A DNA stretch of 64,000 nucleotides, from assembly GCF_021491375.1 (NCBI RefSeq), contig NZ_JAKEVY010000001.1:620001-684000 (forward strand). Reading direction: 5' to 3'. Below the pieces are notes generated by a model. It made no database searches and had not been told where the DNA came from. It was given only the letters and a program-made list of their open reading frames with translations. The number at the start of each line of letters is the position of its first letter. Position 1 is the stretch's first letter. Below are positions 57,165 through 64,000 of the stretch, piece by piece. The stretch comes from Flavihumibacter fluminis (GTDB lineage: Bacteria; Bacteroidota; Bacteroidia; Chitinophagales; Chitinophagaceae). The position numbers and the translations under genes were made by a program.

Positions 57165-59570
57165 ATGAAACAGGTAACACGCGTATTTTGGAAAATTTTC
57201 TTCATTGGCTTTGGGCTCTTCCTGGCGTTGATCTTATCCATCAATCTTGGAGTATTTGGCAAATTGCCTTCCTTAAGTGAATTGGAGAATCCGTCCATAC
57301 TCCAGGCAACAGAAGTGTATGCTGCCGATGGAACACTGATGGGCAAATATTTTCGGGATCGGGGTAACCGGAGTAATGTGGAGTATCGGGACATCAGCAA
57401 ACACGCGGTAAATGCGCTGATAGCCACAGAAGATGAACGTTTTTTTGATCATTCGGGCATAGATGGGAAATCAGTTTTACGTGCAATTATATTCCTCGGA
57501 CGAGAGGGAGGCGGCTCTACCATAACACAGCAGCTGGCGCTCAATATGTTTGCTGAACGCTCCAAAAACCCAATCCTTCGCGTTGTGCAGAAGTTGAAGG
57601 AATGGGTCATTGCCATTAAACTGGAAAGGAATTTCACCAAACAGGAAATTCTGACGCTGTATCTCAATACAGTTCCGTTTGGTGAGAATGTTTATGGTAT
57701 CCGGAACGCGTCACTGACATTCTTTCAAAAAGAGCCGGATCGCCTGGCTCCAGAGGAAGCAGCTGTATTGATTGGATTATTAAAAGGGAACACCCTTTAC
57801 AATCCGAGAAGAAATCCAAAGGCGGCTGTTAGTCGCCGTAATGTAGTACTGGACCAGATGACCAAAAACGGGTATCTCACAGAAGAAGAAGGAGCTAAAC
57901 TGAAGAAAAAGCCGATAGCACTCAATTACAGGAAGCAGGATGAAACTGCCGGACTGGCACCCTATTTCCGTGAGGTACTCAGAGAGGACATTAAGAAATG
58001 GTGTAAGGAAACCACCAACCCTGCTACAGGCGAACCTTATGATATTTACAAAGATGGATTGCGCATCTATACCACCATTAATCCACGTATGCAGATATAT
58101 GCGGAAGAAGCAGTTGCGAAACACATGCCGGTACTGCAGAAAGCCATGGATGCCCAGTCTTCCATCAAAAAAGGAACGGTTTGGCAAGGGCGGAACAGCG
58201 TACTGGAAGCAGCCATGAAAGCAAGCGACCGCTGGAAAAATGGAAAAGAAGATGGTATGACAGAAGAAGAATTACGGAAAAGTTTTAAAACCAAAACACC
58301 GATGAAAGTTTTTGCCTGGAATTCACGCAGGGAAAAGGATACGGTGATGACTCCGCTGGACTCCATCAAATACCACCGACAAATGCTGCAAACTTCCTTT
58401 ATGGTAATGGATCCAATTACCGGTGAAATTAAAGCATGGGTGGGAGGCATTGATTTCAAAACCTACAAGTTTGATCATGCTAATATCAACACCAAACGAC
58501 AGGTTGGTTCCAGTATTAAACCATTTTTATATTGCCAGGCAATAGAAGAAGCAGGATTTACTCCGGAAACGCCGGTTGAAAATGTGGCACAGGATTTTCC
58601 TGGATTCGGATTGGTGCCAGCAAAGGGAGTGTGCAAAGGGAATACGGTATCTATGGCAACCGCCCTCACTTATTCCTACAACTGTGCTACCGCGTATATC
58701 ATGAAGCAGATTGGCCCCAAACGTTTTGTAGAATTCCTGCATAACATCAACATTAAAAGCAAAATGGATCCCTACCCTTCTATTTGTTTGGGTGCCGTGG
58801 ATTTGTCAATGTATGAAATGTTGTATGGGTATACCATGTTTGCCAATAACGGATTCAGTACCGAGCCCATTTATATTACAAGAATCGAAGACCGTAACGG
58901 CAACGTGCTTGAAAGTTTCCAGACCAAGATGAACCAGGTGATTAGTGAAGCAGCGGCGTATACAACTACGAAAATGTTAGGCGGACCGGTAGAAGTAGGT
59001 ACAGCAGCAGGTTTGAGAGCGCGATTGGGAGCCGCTGAGATGGCGGGTAAAACAGGAACAACCAATGACAATGCCGATGCCTGGTTTATTGGATTTACTC
59101 CTCAGCTGTTGGGTGGCACCTGGGTAGGATGTGATGATCGGTTTATCCGCATCGAAAACAACCTTGGCTATGGCGGACAGGCATCGAGACCTATTTGGGA
59201 GTACTTTTTCCAGAAAGTTTATGCGGACAAAACACTTGGTATAGACAAGGATGCCCGGTTTGCGCAGCCAGAACAAATGCGTAATGAAGTCATGTACGAT
59301 TATATGAATATAATTGACCAGGCGCCGTTACCAGGTGCAGAAGGTGAAGACCAGGGTAATGGAGCAGCTGATCAATATCTTATGGATCCGGATGACACCT
59401 ATGTACCCATCGAATCAGAGATTCCAAAAGAAGAACAGGATGTATTAAAGGAAGCACGGCAGTCAGAAAAGAAAAACGATAAAAAAAATCCAGACACACC
59501 AGCTGATGAACCTAAGAAAAAAGGAATACTGAGAAAGATTTTTGGAGGCAAGAAGAACAAAGAACAATAA
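57165..59570 (+). CDS. class A penicillin-binding protein 1A
   Basis: The 801-residue bifunctional enzyme polymerises and crosslinks peptidoglycan. An N-terminal membrane helix (11-30) precedes the glycosyltransferase domain with catalytic Glu89 (EDERFFDH) and GGSTITQQLALNMF. The transpeptidase domain has SxxK at Ser449-Lys452 (GSSIKP), SYN at 504-506 and KTG at 629-631 (GKTGTT). The C-terminal ~80 residues are a charged Asp/Lys-rich disordered tail. It is the second gene of a pair with porW/sprE. Confidence 0.96.
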   Translation: MKQVTRVFWKIFFIGFGLFLALILSINLGVFGKLPSLSELENPSILQATEVYAADGTLMGKYFRDRGNRSNVEYRDISKHAVNALIATEDERFFDHSGIDGKSVLRAIIFLGREGGGSTITQQLALNMFAERSKNPILRVVQKLKEWVIAIKLERNFTKQEILTLYLNTVPFGENVYGIRNASLTFFQKEPDRLAPEEAAVLIGLLKGNTLYNPRRNPKAAVSRRNVVLDQMTKNGYLTEEEGAKLKKKPIALNYRKQDETAGLAPYFREVLREDIKKWCKETTNPATGEPYDIYKDGLRIYTTINPRMQIYAEEAVAKHMPVLQKAMDAQSSIKKGTVWQGRNSVLEAAMKASDRWKNGKEDGMTEEELRKSFKTKTPMKVFAWNSRREKDTVMTPLDSIKYHRQMLQTSFMVMDPITGEIKAWVGGIDFKTYKFDHANINTKRQVGSSIKPFLYCQAIEEAGFTPETPVENVAQDFPGFGLVPAKGVCKGNTVSMATALTYSYNCATAYIMKQIGPKRFVEFLHNINIKSKMDPYPSICLGAVDLSMYEMLYGYTMFANNGFSTEPIYITRIEDRNGNVLESFQTKMNQVISEAAAYTTTKMLGGPVEVGTAAGLRARLGAAEMAGKTGTTNDNADAWFIGFTPQLLGGTWVGCDDRFIRIENNLGYGGQASRPIWEYFFQKVYADKTLGIDKDARFAQPEQMRNEVMYDYMNIIDQAPLPGAEGEDQGNGAADQYLMDPDDTYVPIESEIPKEEQDVLKEARQSEKKNDKKNPDTPADEPKKKGILRKIFGGKKNKEQ

Positions 59571-59640: not shown

Positions 59641-60864
59641 TTAGTTTATCAAAAAGAATTCTTTCCATTGTCCTTTATTGGGATATACTGCATCCTGCAG
59701 CACCAGTGAAATTCCTGGCAAACCTTCCAGGAGAGAAAGGTCCCGATCCTCGTAATCCAGGTTTATATGCCCGCGTTTTAATAATTCAAGGCATCGCTGA
59801 ATCCAGGTAGCTGAAGCTTTTTTATAGTAAGCATGACCACTGACCCTGGATAAGGAATTGTACATGGCAGCAATACCAGCAGCGCCATGACAAAGCTGGG
59901 CATCAACGCACATGGTGGAGGAAGCGTCTAATCGTTCCAGTGAACTTGCACCAATCAAATCAGCAATTTCAATGTATTGTTTTATACCAAAGCTCACACC
60001 AACTTTGTAAAGCAGGAAGGCCTGATTCAAATCCCCATAACACCAGGCCATTCTGTTGTTGTATGTTTTTTCTTGGGTTGCTTCATGAACGGAATTAGGA
60101 AAAATGGAATGCCTGTTATTTTCAGGATCAGTTGGCATCGTTTGTTTTAAAAGCAGGGAAATCATGGAACGTATGGTATCATGCAACTGCTCGTAAAGCA
60201 ACCCCTCTTCAAATGCTTTTAAAAGTACCAGTATAAAACCAGTTTGTCCGTGCGATAAACTTAGATTGATTTCACTTGTCTCTTCTTTTGAAACGATATA
60301 ATTCCGGATAAAACTACCTTGCTTGTTGTGAACTACTTTTCTGAGAATAGCTTCAATAAGACATTCAGCATGCAGTTGAATGGCAGGATCTGGTAATCTG
60401 TCAATAAAATAATTAAGCACTCCAAAAGCACCATGCAGGTAATCGTTAAAATCATGCTCAACCTGGTGAAGTGCCTGTTTCAGTAAAAATTTATCAATCT
60501 CCTCAAACTCATGAAGGTCCTGGTAGATGTATTGTTTTTTTGTAAGGTAATTCAGCAGCGACATAAATCCGCCTAATCCTGTACTCAGGGAAGGATTCAG
60601 CAAAGAACTTCCACTTTCATTGAAATGACTAAATACTTCATCCAGATAATTGCGGCCTTTTTCTATATGATCTTCAGCACCAGTATATTCAAAACTGGTG
60701 TAATGATAAAGTGACAATCCGAGTTTGCCGAGGAAAAGCGAATCATTTACAGCAGTACCAGAATTGATCGCATGATCAATCGTTTTGATCTGGCTGATAA
60801 TATCTTTTGGAATTCCTGCTGAAACAGTGGCCGAAAAATCAACAGGATATGGGTTGACTTGCAT
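59641..60864 (-). CDS. lanC: lanthionine synthetase C-like cyclase
   Basis: The 407-residue protein is a LanC cyclase, which adds Cys thiols to dehydrated Ser/Thr to form lanthionine rings. The zinc site is complete: Cys275 (AWCYGD), Cys325 and His326 (QLCHGAAG). His205 lies in SLSHGQTG, and the repeated GxxG turns (LHGAFGVL, GLGGF, LEGLPGISL) fit the alpha/alpha toroid. The start is the ATG at 60864. It is the last gene of the minus-strand lan locus and follows the response-regulator gene after 87 bases without an obvious promoter. Confidence 0.9.
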   Translation of the reverse strand: MQVNPYPVDFSATVSAGIPKDIISQIKTIDHAINSGTAVNDSLFLGKLGLSLYHYTSFEYTGAEDHIEKGRNYLDEVFSHFNESGSSLLNPSLSTGLGGFMSLLNYLTKKQYIYQDLHEFEEIDKFLLKQALHQVEHDFNDYLHGAFGVLNYFIDRLPDPAIQLHAECLIEAILRKVVHNKQGSFIRNYIVSKEETSEINLSLSHGQTGFILVLLKAFEEGLLYEQLHDTIRSMISLLLKQTMPTDPENNRHSIFPNSVHEATQEKTYNNRMAWCYGDLNQAFLLYKVGVSFGIKQYIEIADLIGASSLERLDASSTMCVDAQLCHGAAGIAAMYNSLSRVSGHAYYKKASATWIQRCLELLKRGHINLDYEDRDLSLLEGLPGISLVLQDAVYPNKGQWKEFFLIN

Positions 60865-60951
60865 AACTTTTATTTACAGGATAAAAGTAGCTGCCGTATT
60901 CCCAATAATTAAGTTTAATACACTAACTGGCATTTTGTAAGGACATATTCC

Positions 60952-61671
60952 TTATTTCATGGTACTATCTCTGGTACGCGATACCAATTGATCTTTGTAT
61001 ATATCACCAATAGGCACTTGTTCCACCCGGTTCCGCAATTTGAGGATATTGTTTTCTATGGAAACAATATTTTTAAACGGCACAATAAATGAGCGATGTA
61101 CACGTACAAATATATTTTTGGGTAACCGATCCTCTATATCTTTTAAGTTAAGAAGGGTCAGAATTTTTTCTTTCCCTTTGTGAAAGGCAACGTAATTTTT
61201 TTGTCCCTCGATAAAATCAATTTCATCATAATTGATTTTAACAAGTTTTCCTCTTTGTTCCGTTTTCACAAAAATGTAGTCGTTCGGAATGGTATCAACA
61301 ACTGCCACCTTACCGGCCATTATAATTCCCATAGCACGTTGCACGGCTTTCATAAAACGAGGAAATGCAATTGGCTTCATCAGATAATCCACCGCTTCAT
61401 AATCAAATGCATCCAATGCAAAATCAGAATAAGCTGTACAAAAAATAACCCTGGTATGATTGCCAACAATTTTAAGGATATCAATACCACTCATTTCCTC
61501 CATCTGGATATCAAGGAAAACCAGATCAGGTTTATGTCTGTTGATCAGATCAATTCCCGTAATAGGATTGGTGGCTGTGGCAATCAGTTCCAGGTGTTCA
61601 ATCTTGGAAACATAATTCACCAGCACATCAATTGCTGCCTTCTCATCATCAATAATCATGCATCTAACCAT
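60952..61671 (-). CDS. LytTR response regulator of the lan locus
   Basis: The 239-residue regulator has a receiver domain (Asp8/Asp9, phospho-acceptor Asp54 in LVFLDIQME, Lys in YLMKPIA) and a LytTR domain (about 135-235, with FVRVHRSFIVPFKNI). It is encoded 6 bases after its kinase. It lies between the precursor/kinase genes and lanC, so it probably controls lanthipeptide expression or immunity. Other lantibiotic loci use OmpR-type regulators, so this is an unusual arrangement. Confidence 0.9.
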   Translation of the reverse strand: MVRCMIIDDEKAAIDVLVNYVSKIEHLELIATATNPITGIDLINRHKPDLVFLDIQMEEMSGIDILKIVGNHTRVIFCTAYSDFALDAFDYEAVDYLMKPIAFPRFMKAVQRAMGIIMAGKVAVVDTIPNDYIFVKTEQRGKLVKINYDEIDFIEGQKNYVAFHKGKEKILTLLNLKDIEDRLPKNIFVRVHRSFIVPFKNIVSIENNILKLRNRVEQVPIGDIYKDQLVSRTRDSTMK

Positions 61672-61677
61672 ACGATA

Positions 61678-62706
61678 TCATACATACAGGGTTAACTCCA
61701 GCGTATAGAATTCCTCCTCATTATTTGTTTCCACTTCATATTTCCCTTTGTAGGAAACATCCAGTCGTTTCAAAACATTTTGAATACCAATTCCACTGCT
61801 TTTCTCAAACACTTTTTTCTTTTTCTTATTACGGCAATAAAAACGAATCCTATCCTGATAGGCATCCAGCCGGATAATCAAAGGATGGGAGCTGTTTTTT
61901 AATTCGCCGTATTTAAGCGCATTTTCTACAAAGGTAATGAATACCAGTGGTGGAATGGTAAAATCTCCCACCGGCCCGCTTACTGCAAAGTCAATCTGGA
62001 GTTCGTTGGAAAACCGTAATTGGTGAATATCGATCAGGTTTTGGAGGTGATGAACTTCCTGTTTAAGGTTAACCATGCCATTATCCTTATCTAGTCCCTC
62101 TATGCTATAGCGCATGATTTCAGACAGTTTCAGGATGTTATCGGCCAGTTCTTCTGAATAATACTGGGCATGTGAGAACAGTGTATTCAGGGTATTGTAT
62201 AAAAAGTGGGGGTTTACCTGGGCTTTCAGGAAGTTATATTCGGTATGAAGTTGCTGGATTTCCAGCTGGCGGTTATTTAATTCGAGTTCCTGGATCCGCT
62301 TTTGTCGTTCGAGTGAATAGATAAAATAGGAGTACCCAAGTGCAAATATGCTGTACTGCATGTAATAAGCTAACGAATAGCCAATTTCTTCTCTGTTTTT
62401 GACAAACTCAACAAAATCAAATTGACCATAAAACAAAAGTATCAAATACCTTAAAAAATAGAAAGCAGGAAACAAGAATAACAAAAGCACAACCTTTCGT
62501 ATCCTTGTTTTATGGTTTGCAAAAATACCCTTAAATAAGATGTTAGTGCAAAAATAGAACCATCCAATGCTGGGTATGTAATAAGCTAATGATGGTAAAA
62601 TCACAATCTCACCTCTGGTCACTAAAACCATCATCTGAGTTGTTCCGATCCATGTAACCCAGACAAGCAAATGCTTTAGAAATTTGGTGTGCATTTTTTC
62701 CTGCAT
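61678..62706 (-). CDS. LytS-type histidine kinase of the lan locus
   Basis: The 342-residue kinase has four membrane helices (8-130), a short coiled linker, and a His_kinase domain with His167 (QVNPHFLYNTLN) and N-box FVENALKYGE near 265. It has no large sensor domain, as in peptide-sensing kinases. The ATG at 62706 lies in the 3' arm of a 14-bp hairpin; a second in-frame ATG at 62694 (residue 5) could be used. It likely senses the mature peptide or the envelope damage it causes (inference). Confidence 0.88.
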   Translation of the reverse strand: MQEKMHTKFLKHLLVWVTWIGTTQMMVLVTRGEIVILPSLAYYIPSIGWFYFCTNILFKGIFANHKTRIRKVVLLLFLFPAFYFLRYLILLFYGQFDFVEFVKNREEIGYSLAYYMQYSIFALGYSYFIYSLERQKRIQELELNNRQLEIQQLHTEYNFLKAQVNPHFLYNTLNTLFSHAQYYSEELADNILKLSEIMRYSIEGLDKDNGMVNLKQEVHHLQNLIDIHQLRFSNELQIDFAVSGPVGDFTIPPLVFITFVENALKYGELKNSSHPLIIRLDAYQDRIRFYCRNKKKKKVFEKSSGIGIQNVLKRLDVSYKGKYEVETNNEEEFYTLELTLYV

Positions 62707-62747
62707 TCAGAATTATTTCAGCATATAGTTACAAATTCTGAATGCAG
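62701..62747. other. 14-bp perfect hairpin between lanA and the kinase gene
   Basis: CTGCATTCAGAATT (62701-62714) and AATTCTGAATGCAG (62734-62747) are exact inverted repeats with a 19-base loop. On the lan transcript the 3' arm contains the first kinase ATG (62706). No U-run follows either arm, so it is not an ordinary terminator. It could limit read-through or hide the start codon. Confidence 0.7.
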
Positions 62748-62766
62748 CCACCAAAAAAAGACCAGT

Positions 62767-62961
62767 TTAAATCATAATCCCGCCTTTTGTAGTTGGCTTC
62801 GGAGTAGATGGACCGCATACTTCAATGAATGACGGAATAAACCGAATATCATTCCCCTTTACAAAAGGTTGCTGGCTGGTAGGTACTTCTGCCTGCTTTA
62901 CCATAATAGCGATTGTTTTCTTTTGAATATTCAGTCTGGATTTGATTTGCTCGGGTCTCAT
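62767..62961 (-). CDS. lanA: class I lanthipeptide precursor peptide
   Basis: The 64-residue peptide lies directly between lanB and the kinase gene. Its leader has the Bacteroidota lanthipeptide motif RLNIQKKTIAIM (residues 9-20), similar to the KLxLxKKTIAxL consensus of that precursor type. The C-terminal part has one Cys (Cys49, in IEVCGPSTPKP) and dehydratable Ser44, Ser52, Thr53, Thr57 and Thr58, ending KGGIMI. One lanthionine ring, probably Ser44-Cys49, is possible with extra dehydro residues. No GG leader-cleavage site is in place before the core; the GG at 60-61 is near the end. Transporter and protease are not in the window. Confidence 0.75.
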   Translation of the reverse strand: MRPEQIKSRLNIQKKTIAIMVKQAEVPTSQQPFVKGNDIRFIPSFIEVCGPSTPKPTTKGGIMI

Positions 62962-62962
62962 T

Positions 62963-62999
62963 GTCAGATGATTTATTTTTAATGAATGAATTATCTGAC
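62963..62999. promoter_or_regulatory. inverted repeat GTCAGAT/ATCTGAC upstream of lanA
   Basis: GTCAGAT (62963-62969) and ATCTGAC (62993-62999) flank 23 AT-rich bases just before the lanA start codon. Upstream, at 63008-63027, the minus strand has six runs of GG. No consensus promoter is seen between lanB and lanA. The repeat could be an operator or a leader hairpin controlling precursor synthesis. Confidence 0.4.
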
Positions 63000-63053
63000 G
63001 AAACTATCCCGGCCACCAGCCACCACCTTATCTATTACACCAACTGACGTATT

Positions 63054-64000
63054 CTAGGTACGAACAGGTTTTTTTCGCATTTTTTCTGCATAATAATAGC
63101 GATACAAAAAATCATAACAGATCATTTCATGCTGCCGCGGTTGTGAAGGAAACAAGCGGTTCAATTGCATATGTATCAGGCTTGCTACCAACTCTTCCAG
63201 TATTGGATCTAGCAGCTTTTGTTGCTGAAGATATAATATCTCGCGTACTGCAGCCTCCATTTCAGAAACTCTGAAACCAGCTCCACTAGCGGTTTCCAGC
63301 TCACGCTTCAATTGATCGCGATATTTTCGGTACCGGAAATCCAATTGCTGTTTTAAGAGTTTCCCTGTATGGAATTCTTCCGCAAAAGCGTTTTTCAGTT
63401 TTTCTAATACGGTTGTTTTCTTATCGAGATCCCATCCAAAAGAATTGAGCAATGCATCAATTCCTTTTAAGCCCCAAAGCCACCTCGCATGTTCCCGTTC
63501 ATCTCCTTCAGTATTGCTTAACCAATTCACCGTTGCAATACTATTCTGATGAAAAATCGTTTCCACTGCTGCTATCGACTGGGTTCCATAACGCGCTGTT
63601 TCACGCTGGTAGGTATCCAACTGGATTTTCCAGATAAATCCTTGTTGCTCAAATTCAGAAACAGTTGAATGAACTAATTGTATGACTTTTCCAAACAGTT
63701 CCGGATCCCTGAGCTGCACCCGGAACCGAATATGAAAATGAGGATCCAGGTAGCGGATAAAGAACCACTTTCGGATGAGCTCCTCCTTTTCAAGGTATTG
63801 AGTTAGTGGATATAGGGCCTGCGTCAGAATTTTTTCCGCAGAACGACTTCCACAATATAATTTAACATACAACCACTCCGATCCTACCGAAAACCGATCT
63901 GTAACAAGTGATTGTTCCAGCTCCGGCAGAGAAACTGAATAGGTTGCTTCCTGTTTTTGCAGAATTGCAATAAACTGATTAGCATGGAATGCTCCTTCCG
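63054..64000 (-). CDS. lanB: lantibiotic dehydratase LanB, C-terminal part (cut by window edge)
   Basis: Reading on the minus strand stays open from the window edge to the stop at 63054, giving 314 residues. The first part (NQFIAILQKQEATYSVSLPE) is the end of the glutamylation-side domain. FSVGSEWLYVKLYCGSRSAE begins the SpaB_C/elimination domain, continuing with LIRKWFFIRYLDPHFHIRFR and EREHARWLWGLKGIDALL. A TTG at 63872 (YVKLYCG) is not the start, because homology continues upstream. LanB dehydrates Ser/Thr of LanA using glutamyl-tRNA. Whether the protein is full-length or split cannot be seen. Confidence 0.9.
   Translation of the reverse strand, partial: EGAFHANQFIAILQKQEATYSVSLPELEQSLVTDRFSVGSEWLYVKLYCGSRSAEKILTQALYPLTQYLEKEELIRKWFFIRYLDPHFHIRFRVQLRDPELFGKVIQLVHSTVSEFEQQGFIWKIQLDTYQRETARYGTQSIAAVETIFHQNSIATVNWLSNTEGDEREHARWLWGLKGIDALLNSFGWDLDKKTTVLEKLKNAFAEEFHTGKLLKQQLDFRYRKYRDQLKRELETASGAGFRVSEMEAAVREILYLQQQKLLDPILEELVASLIHMQLNRLFPSQPRQHEMICYDFLYRYYYAEKMRKKPVRT

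What the first reader, a model, noticed from the sequence alone, without database searches (positions are those of the whole stretch)
59641..64000. Class I lanthipeptide locus at the right edge
A LanB C-terminal part, a small peptide with the Bacteroidota lanthipeptide leader motif, a kinase/regulator pair and a complete LanC lie in a row on one strand. Few lanthipeptides of Bacteroidota are characterised, the pinensins being the best known. This peptide sequence does not look like pinensin by eye.
Basis: partly seen in the sequence, partly recalled or inferred. Interest (0 to 1): 0.8.

Follow-up and report, generated by a model that had tools for sequence, protein, structure and literature searches.

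The report
Lanthipeptide pheromone circuit in soil bacterium
These genes look less like an antibiotic factory than like a cell-to-cell signalling circuit in which a chemically modified peptide is read by its own matched receptor and appears to switch on a small RNA, much like the agr system of staphylococci but in an unrelated group of bacteria.

Summary
In detail: lanB (complete beyond the edge, to about 66131), a 64-aa precursor, a PF06580 kinase, a LytTR regulator and lanC lie in one row. Titles of close relatives mostly name Flavihumibacter. The row sits at the same place in 6 of 15 genomes of the genus; in 8 of the other 9 none of its genes lies at that place. No transporter, protease or immunity gene was found beside it.

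The new finding is how it varies. The peptide's C-terminal part and the kinase's sensor form one cassette (window ~62309-62856) that diverges or is exchanged as a unit: sensor 47% but kinase domain 97.6% identical between two species, while another pair shares the cassette at 99.3% against 91.3% elsewhere. Control kinases do not do this. The regulator's probable sites (21-bp direct repeats, the AgrA period) precede the peptide gene, lanC, and an unlinked, conserved ~145-nt non-coding stretch found in 6 of 6 carriers and 0 of 9 non-carriers.

Best reading: an agr-like autoinduction circuit whose pheromone is a class I lanthipeptide, with pherotypes and an RNAIII-like output. Ligand identity, modification, export and RNA function are inferred. 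I saw no such system described for Bacteroidota in the library searched.

The parts
63054..64000 (-). lanB (C-terminal part in the window; gene continues to about 66131), class I dehydratase
   Evidence: NisB alignment
63000..63064 (-). predicted RR-driven promoter of the peptide gene: direct repeats TTCGTAC/TTGGTGT at 21-bp period (63036-63064), then a TAnnTTTG-like -7 element
   Evidence: 6 of 6 carriers
62767..62961 (-). lanA precursor peptide, 64 aa; residues 1-43 mostly invariant (35 of 43), C-terminal part variable (7 of 21 invariant) with invariant Cys49 and Ser/Thr44
62309..62856 (-). pherotype cassette: peptide C-terminal part plus kinase sensor domain (borders chosen from the sliding windows)
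61678..62706 (-). membrane histidine kinase (PF06580); residues 1-133 modelled as four long helices in mostly hydrophobic sequence (the fourth weakly so)
60952..61671 (-). LytTR response regulator
60883..60947 (-). predicted RR-driven promoter of lanC: same repeat (60919-60947) and same spacing to the -7 element
59641..60864 (-). lanC cyclase with His205, Cys275, Cys325, His326
57165..59570 (+). PBP1A, left flank of the insertion site (not part of the system)

Best explanation
An agr-like autoinduction circuit that uses a class I lanthipeptide as its pheromone. LanB dehydrates Ser/Thr in the C-terminal part of the 64-aa precursor and LanC closes one (methyl)lanthionine on the single Cys, most simply Ser/Thr44 to Cys49 (inferred). 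The product leaves the cell by an unlinked route (unknown) and acts on the membrane sensor of the kinase encoded next to it (inferred from co-variation). The kinase phosphorylates the LytTR regulator, which binds 21-bp direct repeats and drives lanA-HK-RR and lanC (positive feedback, inferred from conserved sites) and an unlinked ~145-nt small RNA (inferred output), and in the window's own genome perhaps a secreted DUF5977/Rhs gene cluster. Peptide C-terminus and sensor change together, giving pherotypes. Shown here: gene content, conservation, cassette divergence and sharing, conserved sites, co-occurrence of the RNA block. Not shown: chemistry, export, binding, transcription or function of the RNA.
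For: Kinase sensor 47.4% but kinase domain 97.6% identical between G000 and G012, RR 98.7%, PBP 98.3%; also 57.4/93.2 (G000-G010) and 58.0/96.6 (G009-G008). G000 and G001 share sensor (100%) and peptide C-terminus although LanB is 89%; dS there 0.04-0.05 against 0.26-0.53 in leader, LanB, RR, LanC, PBP and OmpA, with the kinase domain between at 0.14; cassette 544 of 548 identical sites against 5494 of 6017 in the rest of the operon. Control kinases: in 11 of 11 reciprocal-best pairs G000-G010 the sensor is at most 9.6 points below the kinase domain. LytTR-type repeats at a fixed distance to a -7 element precede lanA and lanC in 6 of 6 carriers; AgrA has 9-bp sites separated by 12 bp, the same 21-bp period (PMC10482373, passage). 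A third site precedes a conserved non-coding block, 6 of 6 carriers, 0 of 9 non-carriers. Strict site pattern: 16 matches in 6 carriers (subset), 0 in 9 non-carriers. No transporter or immunity gene in the flanks examined.
Against: No biochemistry. The peptide end and the sensor are neighbours in the DNA, so one recombination tract could carry both without a ligand-receptor bond. No exporter or protease is linked, and a carrier (G010, 99% complete) has no C39 peptidase match at all. Four of the six carriers match metagenome-assembled records; G012 is 55% complete. The carriers form one group by PBP identity, so co-occurrence of operon and RNA may be a single event. The RNA folds no better than shuffles (z -0.12) and 1 of 40 predicted pairs shows a double change. 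Reversed-pattern controls also hit: 9 in 15 genomes, 1-6 per genome, 1 in 9 genomes. The peptide family was found in one genus only.
Confidence: 0.72

Rival explanations
1. An ordinary autoregulated antimicrobial lanthipeptide (nisin type): the product kills competitors and also induces its own genes through the kinase. (Overlaps with the best reading, so the odds are not exclusive.)
For: LanB, LanC, precursor and a two-component system together are the nisin pattern; sites suggest autoregulation. [quoted passage not shown]
Against: No lanI/lanFEG-, LanT- or LanP-like gene found in the operon or its flanks; a single Cys; a LytTR regulator, whereas NisR is grouped with the OmpR family (NisR recalled); the sites also precede an unlinked RNA-like block.
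Confidence: 0.15
2. The kinase senses something else (an outside or envelope cue) and the peptide is only a product of the pathway; the shared cassette is a recombination hitch-hike between neighbouring sequences.
For: Peptide end and sensor are adjacent in DNA; a tract of 500-600 bp could be transferred whatever its function.
Against: The high divergence starts inside the peptide gene after the leader and stops at the end of the sensor, while leader and kinase domain stay conserved; control kinases keep their sensors.
Confidence: 0.1
3. A LanB/LanC-made cofactor or structural peptide kept in the cell, with a regulator pair for dosage; no intercellular signal.
For: No exporter or leader protease in the operon; leader lacks Gly-Gly.
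Against: A variable C-terminus with a matching variable sensor is not expected of a housekeeping peptide.
Confidence: 0.05

Closest known systems
agr quorum sensing of staphylococci (AgrBDCA, RNAIII)
   Same: Peptide, membrane kinase, LytTR regulator; hypervariable region over the signal peptide and kinase genes (PMC10482373, passages); direct-repeat sites of the same 21-bp period; autoinduction sites; a separate regulated RNA
   Different: No AgrB and no thiolactone (recalled chemistry); peptide is made by LanB/LanC; PF06580 kinase with about four membrane helices; the RNA is unlinked, shorter and has no conserved ORF; host is Bacteroidota
Nisin/subtilin autoinduction (class I lantibiotics with LanRK)
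   Same: LanB, LanC, LanA and a two-component system; product would be its own inducer
   Different: No transporter, protease or immunity genes found; LytTR regulator; sensor-peptide pherotypes; small-RNA-like output
Pinensins and other Bacteroidota class I lanthipeptides
   Same: Phylum and LanB/LanC chemistry; leader close to LxLxKx5L (PMC7268733, passages)
   Different: Single full-length LanB (pinensin LanB is split, same paper); one Cys; no GG leader; dedicated kinase/regulator. The pinensin peptide itself was not compared
Pneumolancidin (lantibiotic with signalling variants in pneumococcus)
   Same: Lanthipeptide that induces its own locus, with strain variants (recalled; only a search listing seen)
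   Different: Gram-positive, an inhibitory lantibiotic with transporter and immunity (recalled)

Membership tests
Class I lanthipeptide | LanB with glutamylation and elimination domains | tested here: met
   PF04738 (35-684) and PF14028 (753-1013); R80, R84, R802, R804, R847 align with the same residues in NisB, H987 by the match line only since that block was cut (roles recalled)
Class I lanthipeptide | LanC cyclase with zinc ligands | tested here: met
   PF05147; H205, C275, C325, H326 align with 8byk
Class I lanthipeptide | Precursor with leader motif, Ser/Thr and Cys | tested here: inconclusive
   Leader L-N-I-Q-K-x5-M is a conservative variant of LxLxKx5L; Cys49 invariant, Ser/Thr44 in 6 of 6; no family model matches
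Class I lanthipeptide | (Methyl)lanthionine in the product | not testable with these tools
   needs mass spectrometry
agr system | AgrB membrane peptidase and thiolactone peptide | tested here: not met
   Operon holds LanB, peptide, HK, RR and LanC only; so it is not an agr member, though it may work like one
agr system | Variable region covering signal peptide and kinase sensor | tested here: met
   control
agr system | LytTR regulator with paired sites at 21-bp period at its own promoter | tested here: met
   by sequence only; binding not tested
agr system | Regulated effector RNA | tested here: inconclusive
   conserved block without conserved ORF between site and terminator-like hairpin, 6 of 6 carriers; expression not tested
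Autoregulated lantibiotic (nisin type) | Dedicated transporter, leader protease, immunity genes | tested here: not met
   none in the operon, in PBP1A and the TPR protein on one side, or in the OmpA-to-prephenate-dehydratase row (L002:8206-19187) on the other; unlinked genes not excluded

The most novel reading that the evidence does not exclude
A Gram-negative, Bacteroidota quorum-sensing system whose pheromone is a dedicated (non-antibiotic) class I lanthipeptide, with pherotype cassettes exchanged between species and an RNAIII-like small RNA as output: an independent, convergent rebuild of the agr logic on lanthipeptide chemistry, and perhaps one of many LanB-kinase signalling systems in the family (Chitinophagaceae, recalled).
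Probability: 0.6. Interest if true: 0.92.

Novelty: new variant of a known kind. Interest (0 to 1): 0.85.

Why it matters
Peptide pheromones with matched receptors are textbook for Gram-positive bacteria. In the listings of my searches I saw none described for Bacteroidota. If this reading holds, lanthipeptide enzymes make dedicated signals as well as antibiotics, kinase-linked lanB loci now filed as bacteriocins may be communication systems, and agr logic (peptide-sensor pherotypes, LytTR sites, effector RNA) has arisen or been assembled twice. It gives directly testable predictions in a soil genus.

Tried and rejected
Pinensin-like or bacteriocin reading: set aside because no transport, protease or immunity genes were found beside it and the kinase co-varies with the peptide.

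Relatives of the peptide outside the genus: none convincing. Of 394 family genomes, 24 match at E up to 0.05; three are Flavihumibacter carriers (E below 1e-42), the other 21 have E 0.0018 or worse and partial alignments.

An ORF in the small RNA: rejected; the frame that starts at the first ATG is broken by T-run length changes between species. Rfam: no match up to E 1.

Cassette test in another genus (that of G126): 2 of 3 genomes have the LanB, 51% apart, too distant to test.

The AlphaFold model of the kinase is usable only in the membrane part (mean pLDDT 55, pTM 0.37). My first wording of the empty site was too strong; one search showed that 3 of 8 non-carriers have another ORF there.

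Rows dropped; 6 of 39 kinase loci gave no kinase by my motif (L085, L089, L097, L098, L105, L126). Of 8 reciprocal-best pairs G000-G012, two (L077/L078, L095/L087) are not orthologues (kinase domains 40 and 58%) and two have cut sensors; four remain (sensor/kinase 85/92, 96/98, 96/97, 94/94). G008's lanB piece (stop inside) and regulator (run of N) were left out, as were G012's and G008's OmpA, which were not on the stretches. Cassette borders were chosen, so its Fisher values describe, not test.
Full report
**Observation.** LanC (59641-60864), a LytTR response regulator (60952-61671), a PF06580 histidine kinase (61678-62706), a 64-aa peptide (62767-62961) and the end of LanB (from 63054) are on the - strand. 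The window lies in a larger contig (G000:C11:620001-684000). There LanB is complete, 1025 aa, with Lant_dehydr_N and Lant_dehydr_C. Residues R80, R84, R802, R804 and R847 align with NisB; H987 does so by the match line (their roles are recalled). LanC keeps His205, Cys275, Cys325 and His326, which align with a solved LanC-like protein.

**What is missing.** On one side are PBP1A and a TPR protein, on the other OmpA, a DPBB_1 protein, an L,D-transpeptidase and a row of aromatic amino-acid genes. None is a transporter, leader protease or immunity gene. The rest of the window was not searched for one. The leader has no Gly-Gly. The PF03412 scan finds a C39 peptidase in 11 of 15 genomes of the genus, G000 included, but not in the carrier G010, which is 99% complete. 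How the product leaves the cell is open.

**Distribution.** Record titles of five close loci name Flavihumibacter in four cases and Flavipsychrobacter in one. Seven of 15 genomes of the genus have a LanB match. Six of them (G000, G001, G008, G009, G010, G012) carry this operon beside PBP1A; in G008 and G012 the contig begins or ends inside lanB, and the G008 piece has a stop. The seventh (G014) has another, split LanB elsewhere. In 8 of the 9 non-carriers OmpA lies 53-1265 bp from PBP1A and no gene of the operon is between them; in five of these the gap is 306 bp or less, in three (G003, G011, G014) there is another ORF. In G013 the contig ends. So the operon looks like one insertion in one group of species.

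**The peptide.** Six sequences align with gaps only at the C-terminal end. Of residues 1-43, 35 are invariant; of residues 44-64, seven. Cys49 and Thr57 are fixed, and residues 44 and 58 are Ser or Thr in all six. A ring from residue 44 to Cys49 is the simplest product (inference). The leader reads L-N-I-Q-K-x5-M; the Bacteroidetes form is LxLxKx5L (PMC7268733, passages).

**The cassette.** Between G000 and G012 the kinase sensor is 47.4% identical and the kinase domain 97.6%, with RR 98.7%, LanC 94.1% and PBP 98.3%. The same holds for G000-G010 (57.4/93.2) and G009-G008 (58.0/96.6). By contrast G000 and G001 have identical sensors and identical peptide C-terminal parts, although LanB is 89%. 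Synonymous divergence between them is 0.05 (peptide C-terminal part) and 0.04 (sensor), 0.14 in the kinase domain, and 0.26-0.53 in leader, LanB, RR, LanC, PBP and OmpA. For G000-G012 it is 2.19 in the sensor and saturated in the peptide C-terminal part, but 0.38-0.59 in LanB, leader, kinase domain, RR, LanC and PBP. LanB itself changes fast (58-89%), but outside this block. DNA windows show that the change begins inside the peptide gene after the leader and ends at the end of the sensor. The cassette has 544 of 548 identical sites in G000-G001 against 5494 of 6017 in the rest of the operon, and 343 of 546 against 3339 of 3690 in G000-G012.

**Control.** Other PF06580 kinases of the same genomes do not do this. 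For 11 reciprocal-best pairs between G000 and G010 the sensor is 67-99% and the kinase domain 76-100%, the sensor never more than 9.6 points lower; the four usable pairs between G000 and G012 give 85/92, 96/98, 96/97 and 94/94. A block covering a signal peptide and its receptor is what is described for agr (PMC10482373, passages).

**Regulatory sites.** The stretch before the peptide gene holds two direct repeats, TTCGTAC and TTGGTGT, 21 bp apart, followed at a fixed distance by a TAnnTTTG-like element (the -7 consensus is recalled). The stretch before lanC has the same layout. AgrA sites are 9 bp, separated by 12 bp, the same period. A scan with the full pattern and up to one mismatch finds both promoters in 6 of 6 carriers and a third, unlinked site in 6 of 6; three of 9 non-carriers have one hit each, not looked into, and the reversed pattern has 9 hits in 15 genomes. 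Of the 30 matches of a looser pattern in the six carriers, 16 fit TTNGTAC-N14-TTNGTGTA; that pattern has none in the 9 non-carriers, with one reversed hit. Eleven of the 16 are peptide-promoter and RNA sites already known, so five are new.

**The small RNA.** After the third site there is no conserved ORF but a block of 146 nt (in G000) that ends in a hairpin and a T-rich run. It is 97, 95 and 88% identical between G000 and G001, G010, G009, against 46, 47 and 36% upstream of the site, and 86, 77 and 72% downstream, which includes part of the next gene. BLASTN finds it in 6 of 6 carriers and 0 of 9 non-carriers. Rfam has no match up to E 1. The whole does not fold better than shuffles, and one of 40 predicted pairs shows a double change. 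That it is transcribed is inferred.

**Other sites.** In G000 one site precedes a secreted DUF5977 protein, with an Rhs-repeat protein further down the same strand; in G001 two sites precede long proteins that begin in a similar way but match no family; G000 has another before a 299-aa protein without a family match, and G008 one before a 770-aa protein without a family match. These hint at secreted effectors as further outputs, at low confidence.

**Reading.** The most economical account is autoinduction: LanB and LanC make a modified peptide, the neighbouring kinase reads it, the LytTR regulator raises peptide, kinase, regulator and LanC, and turns on a small RNA. It works like agr but is not agr, since AgrB and the thiolactone are absent. 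It uses class I lanthipeptide enzymes but lacks, in the places searched, what defines an autoregulated lantibiotic cluster.

**Wider class.** Of the 20 further stretches with LanB that I mapped (two overlap), 10 hold a kinase and a LytTR-type regulator similar to these, in some cases 5-6 kb from LanB (L044, L046, L047, L048, L049, L051, L052, L059, L061, L062). Four loci have Thr-rich peptides without Cys. Whether they are signals was not tested.

**Literature.** I searched for lanthipeptide with Bacteroidetes and kinase, pheromone, pherotype, autoinducer, Flavihumibacter and quorum-sensing terms and saw listings and starts of abstracts; none described such a system in this phylum. Of six papers I saw passages. 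One Bacteroidales survey saw no lanB in that order and mentions signalling as a possible role for some RiPP clusters (PMC10352776). One survey of two-component quorum sensing reports most Nis-pathway proteins as homologues in Bacteroidetes (PMC8895600), so autoinduction by lanthipeptides in the phylum has been hinted at by homology. One paper made class I lanthipeptides of Chryseobacterium and Runella in E. coli (PMC9993889). Subscription journals and preprints are mostly not in this library.

**Changes made at the last check.** Wording on the empty site, the number of Rhs-type targets, the RNA length and the nearest related operon was corrected.

Noticed in passing
L014:6146-6364, L049:7382-7597, L052:13410-13565, L062:6060-6281; also L059:6720-6881 (one Cys): Small Thr-rich peptides, four of five without Cys, beside LanB, kinase and LytTR regulator in other genomes of the family or genus; on four of the five stretches (not L052) no LanC hit was seen. 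Possibly dehydrated, ring-free signal peptides.
   Followed up: no
L177, L170, L196, L188 (about 100-150 nt after the regulator site): A terminator-like hairpin (about CCGTG-TTTT-CACGG plus T run) lies between the site and the long gene, as if the leader RNA were attenuated or a second small RNA.
   Followed up: no
L199:5918-10039 and L199:1-3889: A secreted DUF5977 protein behind a regulator site, and an Rhs-repeat protein further down, near a contig end of the window's own genome.
   Followed up: partly
L044:7463-15482: A LanB-LanC-RR-HK operon with an S41 peptidase and two Cys-containing precursor-like peptides in another genus; nearest to this operon by LanC (35%) and HK (43%) identity among the 20 stretches mapped.
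   Followed up: partly
L002:8133-8205 (window about 66132-66204): Conserved terminator-like hairpin plus T run between OmpA and lanB in 4 of 4 carriers aligned, so lanB probably has its own promoter.
   Followed up: partly
L015:34-548; L014:8222-11412; L055:8814-11915: lanB copies that are cut by a stop or split into two ORFs.
   Followed up: no
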